DNA of 64,000 nt, taken from contig JAYKKI010000038.1 in NCBI GenBank assembly GCA_039881145.1, positions 3,280,001 through 3,344,000 on the forward strand, in the 5' to 3' direction. A program made the position numbers and the translations under genes. Numbering within the stretch: the first letter of the stretch is position 1; each line of letters starts with the position of its first letter. Positions 32,033 to 64,000 of the stretch are shown here, in pieces. This stretch comes from Druceiella hillmani (lineage: Eukaryota; Arthropoda; Insecta; Lepidoptera; Hepialidae). Under the pieces are notes generated by a model. That model searched no databases. It saw only the letters and a list, made by a program, of their open reading frames with translations, and had not been told where the DNA came from.

Positions 32033-33999
32033 TTAACGATATAAAACTTCTATGAAAACAATGTTTTTTGTAAAAACTCTTTCATCGTTTGCTAAACGTC
32101 CTTGACCGTTATATTCGGAAATATAAAACCTTAGACCATCGAATGAACGGACTCTACTTGCTGCGACATACAATTGCCCATGTGTGAAAACTGGCCGATT
32201 CAATAAAATTCCAACCTTTTGGAATGTTTGTCCTTGAGACTTATTTATTGCCATCGCAAATGCAGGTATTATAGGAAATTGTGTTCTTTGAAAGTTAAAC
32301 GGTAAAATAGTTCCAGAGTACGTTAAATTTATACGTGGAATCAAAATTCTCTTATTGCGTGCGATCCCAGTTAAAACTTTGCAATCTATTGAATTTCGAT
32401 CCATCTTGTTCCATTGACTAATGCGCCTTTAGTATTTAAGTTTCTGATCAATAAAACTATGCAATTAACTTTTAATACTAACTTATGCAGTGGTAAACCA
32501 CTAATAGACAAAGAATTAAAAAACTCTACCGGATAGTTATTATTGTCATTGTCATTATCACAAATTATTTTATCATAGCTATGATATGTTCGCTGTTCAC
32601 CAGGAATTTGATTAAGTATATCAGTATTAATCAAAGTACAATCGTCATTTGTGGGTGCTAAAATAACAGAGTTCAATATATTTTCTGAGAGTATGTTATG
32701 GGAAATATTTCCATACACCTCAATAATAATATTGTTTTTATCTCCTATTAATTGATGAGGTATTTCAATAATATTTTTACCAAACTGAGGGAATTGTGGG
32801 GCCTCATCATTACCAATTTTTTTTCAAGAATTCTACAAATTCTATTTCATTTGGTAAAGCTCTCATATTTCGAGTAAATATAACTTTATGAAAATTAGGA
32901 AATTCATGCCAACTTGTAACACAATTTTAAATTAAAGTTCCACGTGATCCATGTGGGATTACTGGTAAGATTTGCCGAAAATCACCGCACAGAAGTATAG
33001 TTTTTCCTCCAAACACTCTATGTTTATCGTTTTCATCACACGCAATAATCTATCTATGATTTTCAACACTTGCAAAGGATACATAGAAACTTCATCAATA
33101 ATTATCAATGATGATGAATTTATGAAACTACCGTAGCTACTATTTGCAGTAATATTTGATACAGAATTTTCTAAAATGGGTATAGGCAATTTAAACACAT
33201 TGTGTAAAGTCCTACCTCCAAGTAATAAAGTTGAAGCTATGCCACTGACCGCAGTTGGAATACAACGAAGATTAAGCGAATTTAATTTGTGAATTAATGC
33301 TGTTTGTGTGAATGTTTTGCCACAACCAGCGTGAGCGGTTAAACAAAAAACATTGGATCCAGTATCATTTTACAAAATGTCACGAATAACTTGATCAATG
33401 AGATTACGCTGTTCAATATTTGCACTTTCGTAATACTCACAAAACAGCATCTCTTGTTCTATTATATCAATAGTATTTTCTTCTTCTATTCTCTGCGAGT
33501 ATGTGGGAACTGGTAAACAAAGAATTTGACAGGACAAATTATGAACAATCAAAATATCATCAATTTCTAATAGAGCTCTGTTAAAGGATACTTCTTTGTT
33601 GTAAAGTCTTAGAAAATCTTCACTAAGATATACTTTAAATTCATTCCATAACGCTAAAGCATTGGCTGGCACATTTATTTCACAAATGTAACCAAATAAA
33701 TTCCGCAATTGTTTTGGTGAATGTAATTCTTTTGATTCATTTAAACATTCCCGCCATTCATTATCATTTGAAGCTATTCTGCGAGCATGGCACGCTTCAA
33801 CAAAAGAAGGGTATAAAAATTCATTGTATGTTCTAACATCCTCGAATGATTTCGGACCACGGACATGTAATAAAAGCAATCGTAAGTGAAAAAGTTCGAT
33901 ATCTTTTGGTGACACTACATATATCCTTGTAATGATTTTATCACCTCCACGGCTTCTCTTCTTCCATTTATTTCGGGAATCTTCCCATACATAATTCAT
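32033..33999 (-). pseudogene. Helitron 2 C-terminal half: linker and PIF1-type helicase
   Basis: From 33999 downwards the frame starts MNYVWEDSRNKWKKR, the linker between Rep and helicase, and continues to NIEQRNLIDQVIRDIL. An in-frame TAA (33367-33369) is followed by TAHAGCGKTFTQTALI (Walker A; the usual first Gly is Ala) and LIIIDEVSM (Walker B) at about 33095. A frameshift near 33040 leads into ILLCGDFRQILPVIPHG (motif III, about 32995-32945). Next come ILAPTND and SISGLPLHKLVLKVNCIVLL (about 32650-32450), a frameshift near 32400, then AFAMAINKSQGQTFQKVGI and HGQLYVAASR (motifs V and VI, about 32260-32145). The C-terminus ends at 32033. The helicase is otherwise nearly full length. It would unwind DNA during transposition. 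Confidence 0.9.
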
Positions 34000-36212
34000 A
34001 GGAATTTCAGTATATTTATCGTGCTGATGGATCAGATCGATTCAACTCAAAAAATGCTAATCATTTTGTTTGTCTTTCATTATAAATTACTTGACGTTCT
34101 TGCCCTTCTCGGAAGTATACATTCTGTCGACGCGGGAAATGAATATCAAGTCTGATTATAGTATGTGATTGAAAATGCATTGGTAATTCATAGATGCGCC
34201 ATATGGCTACTGTTGATCCGACATACGACCAATGAAAAATTGGTAACTTCATTAATTTCTATATTTTGACCTTGTTCATTTCCACCAGACTCTAGTTCAA
34301 CAGATGCACTGTCGTAGCCTTTATACGCATATTTATAAAAGTATTTGACACTTTTGACTGTAGTACATACTTCAACATTTATATGGCAATTAAATTTAGC
34401 AAGTAAATATGGATTGTATGGTACAACATACCGATTGTCAAGGCAACTACCACGAACTTCTGCATTAATACCATTATCACGTCTTCTGTATAATGGATAC
34501 CCATTTAACGATTCACTTATAGTTTCATTAAATCGTTTTGGATACTCTTTTATACATTTTCCATCTCTCATACATACAGAATTAGGATTAAGTACTCCGC
34601 ATGGACCATGCATAATATGTTTTACAACATATTTATGTAATGTTGGATGTGTTTCAATGTGAGGAATCTCCGCAGATACAACTTTATCAATATCTATAGC
34701 ATTAACAATTTTATCTTGCTCATTTAAAGTGAGTAAAACGGGAGCATGAGGCAATCCTCTTTTTTGAAATTCAATTGCATAAATGAGTGCTTCAACTTTA
34801 CCAAAGATGTTATTTTGTATAAGGCCCTTTATGAATGCTTTCAACTTTGACTTGAATACATGCAAAATAATATCAGGTCTAAAATTAGCAGCTTCATCTA
34901 CACCAATGTTGTTAACTATTTCTGGCCAACTTGGATTGCAAGTCATTGTAATAAATAAAGACGGTTTTCCGAAATGTTGTACAATTGACATTTAATCTAA
35001 ATAATTCTGATACATATTTCTTGGAGATCCATTGAATGAAGATGGTAAAATTAATCTATGACCAACATTCCTGGCATTCATGTTCAATTCTAAGTAGTCT
35101 GTTAAATTGTTGTAAACTTCAGACCTAAGAATTGTTTGATTTTGTCGAATGAAAAGTAATCGTGAGCCCTCTATTCTCACATACTTATCAACTATCCACT
35201 GCAGAAACAATTTTTGCGAATGGTGTAACATGCTGAAATCGTCTCTAATTGCAAGTCAATAGGCTGCATACTGAAGCATGGCAAATTTATTTCTGGGTGC
35301 TCTTAAATTAGATGTAGTTGGTGCATTATGTGCAATATTGACATACCACCCAGTATCGCGTTGGGAAAAAGTAGTGGGAACGCTAAAGGATCTAATGATG
35401 AATCCAGAACTGAGATATTTTTAATTACACCATTAACTTTTGAAAAAGAAATCATATTTCGTTCAAAAGGTGGCTCACCATCAACCGTACTAAATATTAC
35501 GGCTACATCAGTTTGAACTGCATCATTGGAGCGGCGTAGATCTAAATCATGATTTTTTAATGAGCATACAAATATCTTTATTTTGATTTTCGACTCTCTG
35601 ACAATGATCTTTCATTGCAATGAATGACCGCACAAAAGGATTACTGCGTTCCAATTGTAGAGAAATTTCTCGCATTATGGTGTTGTTACATGTGTGATTA
35701 AAACGTTCTTGTAATCTATAATTGATAGCAGTGTCAACATCATAAAAATATAATTGCGCATAACATGGTGAGCGACCATATTCAGCAGTCATTGAACCTG
35801 ATCTGTGATAAAAAACATCATGTATTTTGAAATGATACACTCCACTTGTAACTGCCTCGGAAACTTTGGCTTCTGAGCTAACCATAGCAAAACATAAATT
35901 ATATTTCCGAATATTTTCAAAATTTTTCGACTTATTTTTTGTTAAAGGTTCATTAGAAGTAAGTTCATCATACAATGATTTGAAATATTTATTTTGATTT
36001 AATGGTGATAATATTGCTTTACCTTTATGACAACACGAAGTGAATGCAGTTCTGTCGCCTAAAGTCACCTCAGATTCAAAATGTTTCGCATTCCAACACC
36101 TGCACTCTAAATCCATTAATCCACAATCATGACTTAAAAACACTTTTGGAGTAACATTTTGTGCACATTTAAATGTACCTCGTGTAACAGCTCCGCAAAT
36201 TTTATTAATCAA
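34000..36212 (-). pseudogene. Helitron 2 N-terminal half: zinc-finger-like region and HUH Rep nickase
   Basis: The N-terminus (from 36212) has cysteine pairs in ECRCWNAKHFESEV and SCCHKGK, then FENIRKYNLCFAMVSSEAKV and SPCYAQLYFYDVDTAINYR. A frameshift near 35550 leads to DLRRSNDAVQTDVAVIF and an FPNAILGG segment. Helitron_like_N follows (35231-34992: RIEGSRLLFIRQNQTILRSE, SSFNGSPRNMY), then SIVQHFGKPSLFITMTCNPS from 34988. The nuclease block reads FQKRGLPHAPVLLTL: the second histidine of the HUH pair is Pro (CCC codon at 34740-34742). The tyrosine block SVKYFYKYAYKGYDSAS retains both tyrosines (about 34360-34310). A YVGS-AIWRIYELPMHFQSH block follows after a frameshift near 34200. The loss of His and the frameshifts argue against activity. 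Confidence 0.9.
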
Positions 36213-36229
36213 ATAATATTAATCTCAGT

Positions 36230-40800: not shown

Positions 40801-40937
40801 TTGTGCTGGAAGAATTGTTATATGTTCTTGGTCTAGTTTTCCAGGAAGAGCAAAATAGACAAAGGTCGTTTTCGCACTTTTTAGTTGCACGCTAGTCGCA
40901 TATCCGTCAAAATGTTTTAAAAAAACCTTTATGCGAG
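37880..40937. other. AT-rich non-coding stretch
   Basis: Short frames (37877-38059, 39919-40238, 40684-40890) have no recognisable domains. No transposon termini were identified. Confidence 0.35.
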
Positions 40938-41599
40938 TTTCGTAGTTGCGAATCTATAAAACTATGTCGTGTGTTGGAAGGGTGGAAAACAAAAGTTGTT
41001 CGGTTTCGTAGTTGCGAATCTATAAAACTATGTCGTGTGTTGGAAGGGTGGAAAACAAAAGTAGTTCGGTTTCGTAGTTGCGAATCTATAAAACTATGTC
41101 GTGTGTTGGAAGGGTGGAAAACAAAAGTAGTTCGGTTTCGTAGTTGCGAATCTATAAAACTATGTCGTGTGTTGGAAGGGTGGAAAACAAAAGTAGTTCG
41201 GTTTCGTAGTTGCGAATCTATAAAACTATGTCGTGTGTTGGAAGGGTGGAAAACAAAAGTAGTTCGGTTTCGTAGTTGCGAATCTATAAAACTATGTCGT
41301 GTGTTGGAAGGGTGGAAAACAAAAGTAGTTCGGTTTCGTAGTTGCGAATCTATAAAACTATGTCGTGTGTTGGAAGGGTGGAAAACAAAAGTAGTTCGGT
41401 TTCGTAGTTGCGAATCTATAAAACTATGTCGTGTGTTGGAAGGGTGGAAAACAAAAGTAGTTCGGTTTCGTAGTTGCGAATCTATAAAACTGTGTCGTGT
41501 GTTGGAAGGGTGGAAAACAAAAGTAGTTCGGTTTCGTAGTTGCGAATCTATAAAACTATGTCGTGTGTTGGAAGGGTGGAAAACAAAAGTAGTTCGGTT
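40938..41599. repeat. 66-bp minisatellite, 10 copies
   Basis: TTTCGTAGTTGCGAATCTAT begins at 40938, 41004 and every 66 bp to 41532, giving ten units. Only isolated differences were seen: GTTGTTCGG for GTAGTTCGG in unit 1 and ACTGTGTCG for ACTATGTCG in unit 9. The copies are essentially identical, so amplification is recent. Because 66 is divisible by 3, any frame open in one unit stays open across the array, giving long frames on both strands (215 and 232 codons, 22-residue repeats). Neither has a recognisable domain, and coding is unlikely. Confidence 0.97.
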
Positions 41600-54790: not shown

Positions 54791-55018
54791 AACTAAACGA
54801 AATTACGTGATGTAGTATTATTTCTACGTTATTTGAATTCTCAACCACGACCTAGGTTTTGTTGCTTGACAACATCTTCAGGTGGGAATTTGTGAAGATA
54901 CAAAGATAGATTTTTACAAATTGCCCACCTAAAGATGTTGTCATACAACGAAACCTAGGTCGTGGTTAAGAATTTAAATAAATTAGGAATAATACTATGT
55001 CACGTAGACATTTATTTA
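54791..55018. mobile_element. Foldback MITE, copy B (near-complete palindrome)
   Basis: The left arm runs AACTAAACGAAATTACGTGA, then GTAGTATTATTTCTA, AACCACGACCTAGGTTT and GACAACATCTTCAGGTGGG. The right arm is its complement back to CACGTAGACATTTATTT. A short AATTTGT...ACAAATT tip closes the hairpin. The whole 228-bp element can fold on itself. The terminal and CCTAGGTCGTGG parts match copy A at 6724-6889. Non-coding, so mobilised in trans if ever mobile. Confidence 0.85.
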
Positions 55019-56430
55019 CACTTCTTTTTACAGTTACTATAATTCAGTACTCTTTTGACTTCTTTACTGCTAATGAATAACTTTATATTTTTTGGTACAC
55101 TATCTTTATGACAACCAAAAGTAATAAATTTAGTTTTATCTATATTAAGAGACAGCTGGTTAGCGCCAAGCCAAAATACTTAAACAGTTTAACCATTTAG
55201 AAATTCTACTCCGTACTTTAGACCCAAACCAAGTTTTTCACGAAATATAGATTTGTCATCAGCATATGAAACAAGAGAAATTCCTGGCAACAGATTGAAG
55301 ATTTCGTTAATATACAAAATAAATAAAAGTGGTCCAAGAATTGTACCTTACGGTACACCAACAGAAACCGTCATATTCACACTAGTATTATTATTATTTT
55401 TCACATATTGAGACCTGTTCTTCAGGTAATCCTTTATAAATTCCAGGACCACGTCCCTTATTCCATACATTGGTTGTACCTAAAAAATTGAGTGATTAAT
55501 CATGTCAAACGCTTTAGCGAGACCTAGAAAAGCAATTATAATAGTAGAGCAATCAATATTTAAATTTTTGTATATATCTATAGTATAATTGTTTCATTTG
55601 TCCGTTTGCCTATAACGAAACGAAATTGATATTCAGAAATTATGTTATGTTTAGTAAACAAATAAATAAGCCTTTTGTAGGTCACTTTTTTCATTATTTT
55701 TATAATATTCGATATTAATGATACAGGCCGATAATTAGTTGAAAAATATTTATCTTTGGATTTATAAATTGGTATTATTTTGGATGATTCTAATGCATTT
55801 GGCCAGATACCCTTATTAAAAGAAATATTAAAAATATGTTCAATAGGTTTACTAATGTTACTGGTCAAACATTTAAGTACCCTACTGTTTATACCATCTA
55901 TAGCTCGAGCTTTATCCTTATTAGTTATTTTTTAATAGTTATCTCAATTTCTTCTCTGGTCCTTGGAGGTAAGAATCTACTAGGAATACACGACACTGGA
56001 AATAATTGTTTTAACATCTAAGGTTTTTTTATCTTTTTTTGTTATCAAATCCACACCAATATTTGATTACATTATCAATAGTTTGTTTATTATCAAATAC
56101 TTTAATATCGTCGCATATTAAGTAATCGATATTACTAGTTTTTTTATAATTTTTTCCTATCTTGGATTTAAAAAAAATCCCACAATTTTTTTGTCGTCTA
56201 TCGTCTATAATCTGTTTAAAAAGGATTGCTTAGCTAATTTGATAAATTTATTGAGTTACTGACAACACGAGTATAACCAGTCTTGTAATACTGGTTATAC
56301 ACGTGTTTTAAAAACTTATTACCCTTGTTCTTAGAGCAATTTATATACAGTAATTCTTTAGTATTATATAATTTATTTTGGTTATTATTTTTTATTTTTG
56401 TTGCTTATTTAATATATGATGTATTTATAA
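55019..56430 (-). pseudogene. LINE reverse transcriptase, downstream part (CR1/Jockey-like)
   Basis: Reading from 56430 downwards: a pre-RT region (VYNQ, DDRRQKNCGIFFKSK), then DKARAIDGINSRVLKCL, PIEHIFNISFNKGIWPNALE and IIPIYKSKDKYFSTNYRPVS (about 55790-55730). Next come the fingers (SEYQFRFVIGKRTNETI) and motif A as FLGLAKAFDMINH near 55525, where the expected first Asp is Gly. GTILGPLLFILYINEIFNLL and VSYADDKSIF (YADD at 55255-55266) follow, then NIDKTKFITFGCHKDS. In-frame stops (after INHSIF and SVGVP) and frameshifts occur. It is separated from its endonuclease part by the P element at 56431-59371. The family copies RNA into DNA at nicked targets. Confidence 0.85.
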
Positions 56431-58648
56431 CACAGATTTAAAATTGCTATTAGCAGATGACATATAAATAATCGAATAATATCTAGCGAAAATCGTAATA
56501 AGTGGCACACTTTCATTTCATTCTTTTCGTCTTTATTTATAATAGTTCGAGCGATATCCCATTCGTTTAATATGTTTTCTTAACTCGAAACTGTCACCAC
56601 GCCTTATTTTGCCGTGTAACCAGGATATAATATTGACAGGCTGTATTGTTATATTTATTCAACTTTGTCGAATTTGTTATTTTATGTGTGATTTTTAAAT
56701 TTACATAAATCAATGACACAAAATTTATCCCTAAAAATGGTTAAATGTAGTGCCTACATGTGTGATAGCGCTGCATACCGGAAAATTGCCAGGTATTACA
56801 TTTCATAGGTAAGTAACATCTGACATTGACTGCTTCAATTTGAAACTTTCTCGTTATTGTTGTGAAATATATAATTCTGTAAGTATTTCAAGTTTCCTAT
56901 ATTATCGAATTATTAATCCACAACCCGTATATATAGTTTAGGTTTACTTCTTTTTTCGTAATAAAGTAACAAATCTTTGTAAGTCGTCAACATCTTTGTA
57001 GATACATGAAATACAAATTCTGCAAGATAGTCCTGGTCAAAACATGGATTTTTTGAAAAGATATGTAAATAAATGTAAAGGAGTTCCACTTTGCAGAAAA
57101 TATTCGCCAGAATAATGGTCGTTTGCCCTTCACCACATAAGACAACATTAACTGTTACAAAAAAGTTGACGCTAAGCCGGGGTTTACGAGAGTCTTTAGA
57201 TATTTAAAAAAAAATCGTGGCAGTATCGAAAAATAAAGTATTTGTTAATCTTTGTACCGATGAAATGTCTATTAGGAAAGGGTTAATTTAGGATTCATCG
57301 CAAGCTGTACATCCAGGTTATGTCAACGTAGGTATAGAGGTAGCAATCGACAACTTACCACTTGCAACGCAGGCGCTAGTTTTTATGGTTACTGCTATAA
57401 ATAATAAGTGGAAATTATCGATAACCTATTTTTTATACAATCTATGAAGGACTCAGAAAAATCGAACAACGTGACTATTGCCATAGACATTAGAGGAAAT
57501 TGGGATTTGTATTTTCGGCTTAACATTCGATGGCGCATCTAACAGTATTAACGTGTCTACGGAACTTGGGTGTCAGTTAGTTTGGCCAAACATAAAACCG
57601 TATTTTATATCCAAAAATGATCACAAAATTAAAATTTTCTATGATAAAATTAATTCGTAATGCTTTGGGTGATTTTAAAAGTTATTAAAGATTTAAATAA
57701 TAATATAATCAAATACGAATTTTATAAATTATTTTTAAAAATATTTGCTTTTATTATAGGAAACAAAAGGTTTACATTTAGGGAATAAACTCAAATTGGC
57801 TCATATTTATTTTTCACGACAAAAGATGAAAGTGCGATTAGCGACACAACTGTTCAGTAATTCTGTTGCCGATGCACTGATATTTTGTAAAAATATTTTG
57901 AAGCTTCTTTAGTTTCAAGGAGGTGCATCTGCGGCTAAATTTTTAAAGTATATTAATAATATTTTTGATATTTTGAACAGTAAGTCTATTTATGCATCTG
58001 GTTGGAAAAAAAGCACTTTGTGTAGCAAATATAGAAAGAACAATTCCTTATTTTTCCGAATGTAAAATTTACTTGTCAATACTGAATTTTTCAATTGGCG
58101 AGTTGATTGTAACTTCTCAAAGAAAGATTGCGTTTGTTGGTTGTATCATTGATATGGATTAAATATTTTTTTCTGAATTAATAATTAAAAAAAAGTTACA
58201 TTTTGTACCTCTTTATAGAATTAGCCAAGATCATATAGAAATGTTTTTTTCAATGATTCTTACGAGAGGAGGCTACAACGATAATCCAAATGTTATTCAC
58301 TTTAATTAATATTGTTATTTAGGAAAAAAAAATTAATACGTCCTAAGCTTTGTGAAAATAGTGCAGGAAATTGTGTTCCTTTAGAAGAAATATCAATGCT
58401 TACATCGCCTTGTACAAATCTGAATAAATTCATTAATGAAACAACTGCAGCTATAGACATTGTAGCTCATCAATTTGATCACCAGGAAATAGAGGTCGAT
58501 GACATTGAGGATGAATTCTTTGAAAACCTTGTTACCTTACTAGATGAGTACTCTCAACATGTCATAACATACATTGCTGGGTTTATTGTCCGAAAAATTC
58601 TCAAATAAAATGTAATATGTATTGTATGCTTCTCATGGGAGACGAGGG

Positions 58649-58699
58649 ACCCCTGTCTTTGATTTTTTTCGTTCTCTCATTAAAATCAAAGACAGGGGT
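58649..58699 (+). repeat. 18-bp perfect inverted duplication inside the P transposase
   Basis: ACCCCTGTCTTTGATTTT at 58649-58666 is exactly complementary to 58682-58699 around a 15-nt loop. The right arm corresponds to the coding segment (IKIKDRGG). The left arm appears to replace or displace normal sequence, as a local template switch would do. Confidence 0.85.
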
Positions 58700-58985
58700 G
58701 GCTTGATTTATCCTTCAGAAGATGTCGTCACCAGTTACGCAAAATTGTGAAAAAATAGTCAGACAATTTAATTGTCCACAAAATGTAATAATGGTTGTGA
58801 CACTCATTTCAGAAACAAATGATTTTTATAGGATATTTAATAGCGAAAATTGTGAACACGACGCAAACCATGTTTTAGTTCTGGTAAAATTAATAGTTCA
58901 ACATTACCTGAATGTAAGATATCATTATGAGGCTAGGAAAATGACTCATAAGATATCCAACAGAAACTATTTAAAAAAAAAAGAT

Positions 58986-59013
58986 GTATATATATATATA
59001 TATATATATATAA
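58986..59013. repeat. (TA)n microsatellite
   Basis: A short TA run near the 3' end of the P-element coding region. Confidence 0.9.
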
Positions 59014-59379
59014 TGTGTTCGTTCACACGACAAGAAATTTCATTTAACCACCATTTCGATAAAGCCTTTATTACTATTGTTTAAATTATTTACATTCACA
59101 GACAGCATAGGATAATGTCATGTTATATTGAGATTTATTATGAATTAATTGATGACAATATGAAAAATTTAAACATTTATTTTGTTTTAATAATGTAATG
59201 TAATGTAGTGTAATGTAATGGAAATATTTATACGTTAATGCTCAGTCAAATACGTGTTGCCGCTGCATAAAGACACACCCCTGAATATATTTAGTCTTTA
59301 TAGACTCCGCCTTTTGGTTACGGTTGTCAAGCTGTGCTATGTCATCTACTTCTTGATATTGTAAATCTGTGATTTATAA

Positions 59380-60210
59380 GGAATTGTATATTTTTCACTA
59401 ATGAATTAATCGTCCCATTTGGATCAGGTATAGCCAATAAATTTTTCCAAATTATTTGATCACTAATATTGCTCATTTTATTGTAATAAATAACTGGGAT
59501 TTTTGCAGAACTGATTATTTCCTTAATTTTACTATTAAAAAATAATTAACCACTATCTCCAATTGCACAAGGCCTTGTTATGCAGTCGAAGTTCGGAATA
59601 TAGCTAGCATTTAAAAAAATATTTAAAAATTCATCAGTTACCCCGTCACAACTAAACAAGTTTATATTAAAGTCACCATTAATAATATAATTCTTCTACA
59701 TTTTGTTGTTGTCTAGATACAATTTTACAGAGTTGACGAATAGAAATCTTCTTTACCTTTTTAAGTTTTATAGCACCCTGTGTTCTGGTTCTGGATAGCA
59801 GCATCCGATTTATTTTTTATTATAGCCAATAAGATCTTATTACATTCAAACACGTCAACGTTCACTGGATGCCCAATATACTCCTTAATGAACATGACAC
59901 AACCATCTGCTTTATTTATATGGCTGTTATTGTACTAAATATTGTAGTTTTTAGGTTTAAGAATTTAAAACAAGGCAAGTTCTATAATTGAGTATATCCA
60001 ATAATATCTGGTTTCACTAACATTATGTCAATAAAACATTCCAACCTTTCGAAATATGTATTTAAACCTTTGACATTGATGTTAAGTGTAAGTAAGTTGT
60101 TTTCAACAAACTGTTTAATTCATAAAATTAAACGGAACGATGATCAACTTTACATTCGTCAACATTATTATCGTCCGCTGATATAGTGAATTGATTTATC
60201 AATAGTCGAT
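59380..60210 (-). pseudogene. LINE apurinic-type endonuclease, upstream part
   Basis: From about 60130 downwards the minus strand reads NNLLTLNINVKGLNTYFERL (endonuclease start), then KPDIIGYTQL, where the usual catalytic ET pair appears as TQ. Next come NKADGCVMFIKEYIGHPVNV and, after frameshifts, INGDFNINLFSCDGVTDEFL (GDFN codons at 59668-59679). SYIPNFDCITRPCAIGDSG follows, then a stop where the SDH/IDH segment should be, and IISSAKIPVIYYNKMSNISD. It is the same LINE as 55019-56430, separated by the P-element insertion. The endonuclease nicks the target for primed reverse transcription; several catalytic positions are altered here. Confidence 0.8.
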
Positions 60211-62011: not shown

Positions 62012-62101
62012 AAACCATTATACATGAAAGCAGTACGCCGTTAGGTGAAAAAAATTACGACGATAATATCGAAAATGATATAAATATTATCAACACATCA
62101 G

Positions 62102-62212
62102 GTAAGCAAACCATTATACGAGTGCATTAAATATATAATTATAAATAATTTAATTTTGATATTCACTTATTCGAATGTGTCTTTAGTAAATGAATTAATG
62201 CTTATTTTTCAG
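62102..62212 (+). other. Intron 2 of the terminal gene
   Basis: 111 nt, donor GTAAGC and acceptor TTATTTTTCAG. The phase-1 junction leads into GNNADEKE, which differs from the long exon 3 frame by one base. The join is therefore good but the reading frame is broken just after it. Confidence 0.6.
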
Positions 62213-64000
62213 GCAATAATGCAGATGAAAAAGAGTTTTGTTTCACGAAACAGATCTTTATCTATATCGTCCTCATCGTCATCCTCCTCTTTATCTTCCT
62301 GCTCGTCATCTTGTTCAAAATGTAATACCACAAACTTAGAACAGTGTAATAAAGAACCCGACAATATGGTGAACTTAAATAATATCCGGGCCCGTAGTCT
62401 GCAAAATGAAACTAAAGAAAATAGGGTAAAGAAAATAGATTCAGATGACAGATTGGAAGAGAACGTTGAAGAAAACATTTTAAATGAGTCAAACCAAAAA
62501 GGACGAAAGAGGATAGCTCAGCCAGAACTTTGGAAAACGAATGTAGCAAAATGTCTACGAAATGCAGGGCAAGAATATATAGGTAAAAATAAAAAAGTCA
62601 TACAGAAAAGACGATTGCGACAGGGATGTACAGAGAAGTCCAAATTGAAACGTAACACTAAATTTGATAATGAGACTCGCCTCCATATTTTTAACGCTTT
62701 TTATAACTTGCCTAATTTGCAAAATAAAAGAATTTTTGTAGCATTCAATTTAACCTCTGTTGTTCCGGCGTATCAATATAAGAAAGGAACACGTCGAAAT
62801 AATAACGCATTTTATTTGACTGATAAAGAAGGCGATAAAATTCGTGTCTGTAAAACATTTTTAATGTCTACCCTGGATGTGTCAGACAGATTTATTCGAA
62901 CAGTTACAGATAAATTTAAAAATGATATTCCGGGAATTATAGCTGAAGACTTGCGAGGCAAACATGGCAATCATAATCGTGTAGATAATAATATTAAAGA
63001 TAGTGTAAGGAATTTCATAAACGCAATACCAAAAATAGAAAGCCATTACTGTCGAGCAGATACGAACAAGGAATATATTGACGGAAGTAAGACTATTGCA
63101 GAAATTTATAGAGACTACGCAAAACTGTGTGAGGAGAAAGGAGAAACAAGTGCGAATTATATTATGTTCAATAGAATATTTCATGGAGAATTTAATATCG
63201 CTTTTTATCAACCTAAAAAAGATCAGTGCGAGGACTGTACAGCCTACAATAATGCAACTGGAGAAGATAGAATTCGTCTAAAACCTAAATGTGACAACCA
63301 CATAAAAGAAAAAGAACTTTCGAGAAAAGAAAAAGATAAAAAAAGAAGCAGAAGAAAAAGACTCGACTATAGTAGCGGTTTATGATTTACAGGCCGTGAT
63401 GCCATGTCCCAGGGGAGATGTATCAAACTTTTACTATGTTTCGAAAGTGAATACCTTAAATTTCACTATATATGAGATGAAGAATAAAAATGCGCTCTGC
63501 TTCGTCTGGCATGAAGGAGATGCTAATAGAGGAGCTATTGAAATCGGAACTTGCGTTTGCGAATATTTGAAAAGTCTTGGTAAAAATATAACTCCCGGAG
63601 CCAAGCTACATGTGATTTTTTATTCGGACAACTGTTGCGGGCAACAGAGAAATAAATTTATTATTAGCATGTACATGTACGTTGTTTCTACTTTTAATTA
63701 CATCGATAGTATCACACAGTAGGGGCACACCCGAAACGAAGGGGACAGTGTCCATTCTGTAATTCAAAAAAATATCAACAAGACTTTGAAATCTGGCCCC
63801 ATCTAAACACCGGATCAATACATATCCATTATTCGCAAAGCAAAAAAGAAAGGAGGTCCTTTCCATATAAAGTAATAGAGATGGACCATAAATGTTTTTA
63901 CGATTTTAAGTCTCTTGCCTCTGATGTGGGTAAAAATGTTAACAAAAACACAGGCAACGAAAATATGAAAATGACAGATATAAAGATTTTAAAAGTAGAT

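What the first reader, a model, noticed from the sequence alone, without database searches (positions are those of the whole stretch)
56423..59379. P element with matching TIRs and perfect 8-bp target duplication, nested in a LINE
CACAGATTT ends in opposite orientation at 56431 and 59371, each flanked by ATTTATAA. The interior reads as a THAP9/P-type transposase, and the outer flanks are the two halves of one minus-strand LINE (endonuclease at 59380-60210, RT at 55019-56430). The insertion can be dated as younger than the LINE. A full-length P-type element with recognisable ends is worth classifying.
Basis: partly seen in the sequence, partly recalled or inferred. Interest (0 to 1): 0.75.

Follow-up and report, generated by a model that had tools for sequence, protein, structure and literature searches.

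The report
Decayed P-element nested inside a LINE
An old, broken P-type DNA transposon sits inside an older retrotransposon in what looks like an insect genome; both its ends and the duplicated target are preserved, but the element is dead, internally deleted and of a well-known kind.

Summary
ATTTATAA lies at 56423-56430 and 59372-59379, flanking CACAGATTT at 56431 and its inverse ending at 59371. The inverted repeats are longer than noted: 34 bp, 27 of 34 matching. The interior is a P/THAP9-type transposase (three Pfam domains; best homologue E 2.1e-118), broken by 10 in-frame stops in nine frame blocks. Removing the element and one ATTTATAA joins the LINE: for 4 of 4 LINE proteins tried, one tblastn match crosses the junction, so the LINE is older. 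"Full-length" is wrong: in the host genome (2.59 Gb; 106 matches) 10 of 10 fetched copies that keep both sides of 57006-57008 hold 0.45-2.75 kb there, homologous between copies and missing here. Other copies share the termini (5 of 13 left ends exact) and their flanks are unrelated to the window's. A separate, younger P-type family in the same genome has CACA-type ends and perfect 8-bp duplications in 6 of 6 copies examined. A survey lists P elements in all arthropods it studied (PMC6327564). Ordinary: a new member of a known kind.

The parts
56423..56430 (.). target site duplication ATTTATAA, left copy
56431..56464 (+). left terminal inverted repeat, 34 bp, begins CACAGATTTA, inner end AGATGACATA
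   Evidence: the same left end in other genome copies
56737..56810 (+). possible remnant of the THAP zinc finger (MVKCSAYMC, then GITFHR in the next frame) followed by a GTAAGT splice-donor-like sequence; by eye only
   Evidence: translation; Pfam gave no match
57008..58979 (+). decayed P-type transposase reading in nine frame blocks with 10 in-frame stops
57259..57261 (+). codon for the first catalytic Asp (aligns, through P0009, with residue 230 of the Drosophila transposase)
57529..57531 (+). codon for the second catalytic Asp (aligns, through P0009, with residue 303)
58238..58240 (+). codon for the catalytic Glu (aligns with residue 531)
58987..59012 (+). (TA)n microsatellite where the last residues of the transposase would be expected
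59338..59371 (-). right terminal inverted repeat, 34 bp
   Evidence: same right end in other copies
59372..59379 (.). target site duplication ATTTATAA, right copy
59380..60116 (-). 5' part of the interrupted LINE: endonuclease and start of the linker
55027..56430 (-). 3' part of the interrupted LINE: linker and reverse transcriptase (RT proper 55919-55027); the last ~180 residues of ORF2 gave no match down to 53000

Best explanation
A P-superfamily cut-and-paste DNA transposon, about 4.2-4.3 kb when less damaged (judged from one duplicated locus), inserted by its own or a sister copy's transposase into ATTTATAA within an existing LINE copy. The staggered cut was filled in, giving the 8-bp duplication. 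This copy has an internal deletion of roughly 1.1 kb (before or after insertion is not known), then decayed by point mutation and small indels; it is now inert. Shown: ends, duplication, transposase homology, interrupted LINE, sister copies with the same ends, missing interior. Inferred: that the chemistry was that of Drosophila P (GTP-dependent RNase H-fold transposase), and that the inner TIR block AGATGACATA is a transposase contact site.
For: TSD and 34-bp TIR, 27/34. Pfam PF21787, PF21788, PF21789 above cut-off. 205 homologues at E <= 1e-3, 120 listed, best 2.1e-118 at 39% over 98% of the query. Match to the solved Drosophila P transposase 6p5a, E 1.4e-10; the three catalytic acids are preserved in the decayed reading. 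LINE match across the junction for 4 of 4 proteins tried, of 120 listed. 106 genome matches. In the fetched copies CACAGATTT is exact at 5 of 13 left ends and AAATCTGTG at 4 of 13 right ends, within one mismatch at 9 and 7 of 13. Of 16 outer flanks of 11 copies, none matches the window's flanks. 10 of 10 copies that keep both sides of the break hold extra interior, and these blocks are homologous to one another. A second P-type family in the same genome has perfect 8-bp duplications in 6 of 6 copies.
Against: Duplications in the sister copies are mostly worn: of 6 other copies with both ends, 7/8, 6/8, 5/8, 3/8, 3/8 and 3/8 letters match (random 8-mer pairs reach 7/8 in 0.2%, 6/8 in 1.2%, 5/8 in 6% and 3/8 in 43%). 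L020 and L024 have no recognisable left terminus, L017 and L019 a worn one, and the left-end alignments of L027 and L028 are weak. L009 and L010 are one duplicated locus counted twice. The THAP domain gave no Pfam match. LINE continuity was tested with proteins only.
Confidence: 0.95

Rival explanations
1. A domesticated THAP9-like host gene (immobile) that happens to lie between LINE pieces.
For: P-derived THAP9 genes exist in human and other vertebrates (PMC7776569, passages).
Against: TIRs and 8-bp duplication, the LINE match across the junction, many dispersed copies, and 10 in-frame stops.
Confidence: 0.01
2. A non-autonomous, internally deleted derivative that was mobilised in trans already in its present short form, rather than a longer copy that lost its middle after insertion.
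For: The missing stretch has sharp borders (homology in other copies resumes at element positions 576-580), and two other copies, L014 and L015, have their own, different internal deletions. Internally deleted P elements are described in Drosophila and zebrafish (passages).
Against: None of the 20 fetched stretches shows the same deletion, so there is no sign so far that this short form multiplied.
Confidence: 0.3

Closest known systems
Drosophila melanogaster P element (PMC7776569, passages)
   Same: RNase H-like transposase split by a GTP-binding insertion, catalytic acids in the same places, 8-bp target duplications, TIR of about 30 bp
   Different: Imperfect 34-bp TIR (27/34) against a perfect 31 bp; this copy is dead and internally deleted; remote sequence similarity only
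Anopheles gambiae P subfamilies (PMC1562414, passages)
   Same: Elements of 4.2-7.5 kb, TIRs of 27-31 bp with up to 8 mismatches, perfect 8-bp duplications; several subfamilies coexist, some with stops and frame shifts
   Different: TIR sequences not compared here; the host of the window is not identified
Zebrafish Pdre2 / THAP9 (PMC10983969, passages)
   Same: P-type transposase, 8-bp duplications, terminal CA...TG
   Different: 13-bp TIR CATACCTGTCAAC with distant 12-bp subterminal repeats; here a 34-bp TIR

Membership tests
P superfamily of DNA transposons | P/THAP9-type transposase with RNase H halves and GTP-binding insertion domain | tested here: met
   PF21787, PF21788, PF21789 above cut-off; 6p5a match
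P superfamily of DNA transposons | catalytic D, D, E in place | tested here: met
   codons at 57259, 57529, 58238; that these three residues are the catalytic ones is recalled
P superfamily of DNA transposons | 8-bp target site duplication | tested here: met
   ATTTATAA both sides
P superfamily of DNA transposons | terminal inverted repeats starting CA | tested here: met
   34 bp, 27/34; shared by other copies
P superfamily of DNA transposons | N-terminal THAP zinc finger | tested here: inconclusive
   short by-eye remnant at 56737-56810, no Pfam match; no THAP match in the fetched copies either (P0009 residues 1-94 unmatched in 20 loci at E <= 0.01)
P superfamily of DNA transposons | transposition activity | not testable with these tools
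   the reading is broken by 10 in-frame stops

The most novel reading that the evidence does not exclude
The genome around this fossil hosts P-type lineages of very different age with CACA(G)...CTGTG ends, and the youngest one seen (4.5-5.0 kb, copies 97-99.5% alike, 6 of 6 with perfect and different 8-bp duplications; 1 of the 6 with no stop in its transposase match, the other 5 with one stop each) is still mobile today.
Probability: 0.3. Interest if true: 0.4.

Novelty: new member of a known kind. Interest (0 to 1): 0.2.

Why it matters
It gives genome-checked ends (34-bp TIR, 8-bp duplication) for an old P-type family in a large insect-like genome, and led to a young P-type family in the same genome that could tell when such elements last moved there. 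In itself it is one of many dead transposon copies.

Tried and rejected
Viral contigs: no exact match to the TIR pattern, no relative of the transposase alignment (69 pattern matches, none confirmed). Two further CACAGATTT sites in the window, 27295 and 31828, looked isolated: by eye the bases that follow do not resemble the TIR. The reading that the element is full length was dropped. A search of the genome for other LINE copies (to test continuity at DNA level) was asked for 17 times and never answered, so the LINE test rests on protein alignments with 4 of the 120 listed LINE proteins. Only 20 stretches around the matches were fetched and mapped; L006 and L007, delivered, were not analysed. 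The number of matching bases in the TIR was first given as 26 of 34; the recount gives 27. The first comparison of the element with the young family was printed only in part and compared loci without turning them; replace it.

Full report
Observation. The inverted repeat continues: 27 of the first 34 positions match, with perfect blocks of 10 bp at the outside (CACAGATTTA) and 10 bp inside (AGATGACATA). With low-complexity pairs left out it is the only 8-bp duplication plus 9-bp inverted end in the window at 0.5-10 kb spacing. Dinucleotide shuffles produce such a pair in 20 of 1000 trials of the 5.5 kb region and in 16 of 60 trials of the whole window, so the letters alone would be suggestive, not proof.

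Interior. A pieced translation matches three Pfam domains of the P-element transposase (TNP-like RNase H N-terminal, GTP-binding insertion, RNase H C-terminal) and 205 proteins at E <= 1e-3 (120 listed), the best at 39% identity over 98% of the query; the listed hits that carry a species name are from moths, butterflies, a seed beetle and two fishes, called THAP-type, THAP9-like, hypothetical or unnamed. It matches the solved Drosophila P transposase (6p5a, E 1.4e-10). Three acids align with residues 230, 303 (through P0009) and 531 (directly) of that protein, counted by me in the printed alignments; that these are the catalytic triad is recalled. Their codons stand at 57259, 57529 and 58238. 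The reading is broken: nine blocks in changing frames with 10 in-frame stops; some breaks could be introns. The C-terminal end runs into a (TA)n repeat. A THAP start is visible by eye only, without Pfam support.

LINE. With the element and one duplication taken out, one tblastn match crosses the junction for 4 of 4 LINE proteins tried (P0121, P0122, P0123, P0132, of 120 listed). With the element in place no match can reach across 2.9 kb; for P0121 the linker then scores 83.6 and 26.9 bits in two pieces instead of 97.8 bits in one. Frame agreement across the joint alone would occur by chance one time in three. The LINE reads on the minus strand from 60116 to 55027, with the insertion in the linker between endonuclease and RT, and is itself decayed (8 in-frame stops in six aligned blocks; the block next to the joint was printed in another frame and not counted). 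So the P-type insertion is younger than the LINE.

Genome. The window lies in a 2.586 Gb assembly of 181 contigs. A DNA search gave 106 matches, with 40 of 1364 candidates scored, so this is a lower bound. I fetched 20 stretches. Of 13 left ends examined, 5 read CACAGATTT exactly and 9 within one mismatch; of 13 right ends, 4 read AAATCTGTG exactly and 7 within one mismatch; two of the left ends (L027, L028) rest on weak alignments. Of 16 outer flanks of 500 bp or less from 11 copies, none matches the window's flanks; the only matches among them are L009 with L010 (one duplicated locus) and an inverted 192-bp match between the left flanks of that locus and L014. Of the 6 other copies with both ends, target duplications match at 7, 6, 5, 3, 3 and 3 of 8 letters, which is what old insertions could look like but not strong support. 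All 10 copies that keep both sides of 57006-57008 hold 0.45-2.75 kb there (1.07-1.18 kb in L009, L010, L011 and L017); each of these ten blocks has homologous stretches in others of the set, so it is ancestral sequence that the window copy lost; the longest blocks also hold additional sequence. Eight copies (L009, L010, L011, L015, L017, L019, L021, L028) show about 56-77 bp more at 57130-57132. L009 and L010 measure 4293 and 4219 bp between the ends. All 8 copies printed for P0001 (of 20 mapped) have in-frame stops.

A younger family. A protein search of the same genome found 61 matches with 59 of 4771 candidates scored; six rows have no stop and an open frame of 680-817 aa. Six copies of one family, fetched at greater width, are 97.0-99.5% alike over their long collinear matches and 4.5-5.0 kb long; they begin CACAGACTATG (4 of 6) or a one- or two-base variant of it (2 of 6), all end CTGTG, and all 6 have a perfect 8-bp duplication, each different. 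One of these six has no stop in its match, five have one. The window's element shares only one 40-bp stretch at 82.5% with them. This is an independent check that P-type elements in this host have CACA-type ends and 8-bp duplications.

Place among known things. P elements of Drosophila (31-bp TIR, 8-bp duplication; PMC7776569, passages), Anopheles (27-31 bp TIR with up to 8 mismatches; PMC1562414, passages) and zebrafish (13-bp TIR; PMC10983969, passages) share the plan. A survey with 73 arthropod genomes lists the P element superfamily among those present in all investigated species (PMC6327564, passages). The finding is therefore ordinary: a family of a known kind, represented here by a dead, internally deleted copy. 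Whether this particular family has been described before was not searched for. Other papers were seen only as search listings.

Noticed in passing
L039-L044 (G000 C73, C50, C61, C41 twice, C127): A separate young P-type family, 4.5-5.0 kb, 97-99.5% alike, CACA(G)...CTGTG ends, 6 of 6 with perfect 8-bp duplications; 1 of these 6 has no stop in its transposase match, 5 have one.
   Followed up: partly
window 58649-58699: Perfect 18-bp inverted repeat with a 15-base loop; one arm is conserved transposase coding sequence (KIKDRG), the other its exact reverse complement, as a template-switch mutation might leave.
   Followed up: no
window 54804-55006: 88-bp arms, 85% complementary, 27 bases apart: a fold-back-like repeat next to the point where the LINE stops being recognisable.
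   Followed up: no
window 32033-36218: Long minus-strand readings; the one at 34188-34991 matches Helitron_like_N (PF14214, E 2.2e-30): probably a Helitron.
   Followed up: no
window 62084-63385: 433-aa open reading with 71 homologues, many carrying PF25273 (DUF7869 in some names), named ones from butterflies, moths, beetles and other arthropods; no Pfam match of its own.
   Followed up: partly
window 40937-41599: Ten copies of a 66-bp tandem unit (99% matches), in open readings of 240 and 235 codons on the two strands.
   Followed up: no
L009 and L010 (G000 C103, about 720 kb apart): Two copies of the element with the same structure and 99.8-100% identical 500-bp flanks: one locus duplicated within the contig, or an assembly duplicate.
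   Followed up: partly
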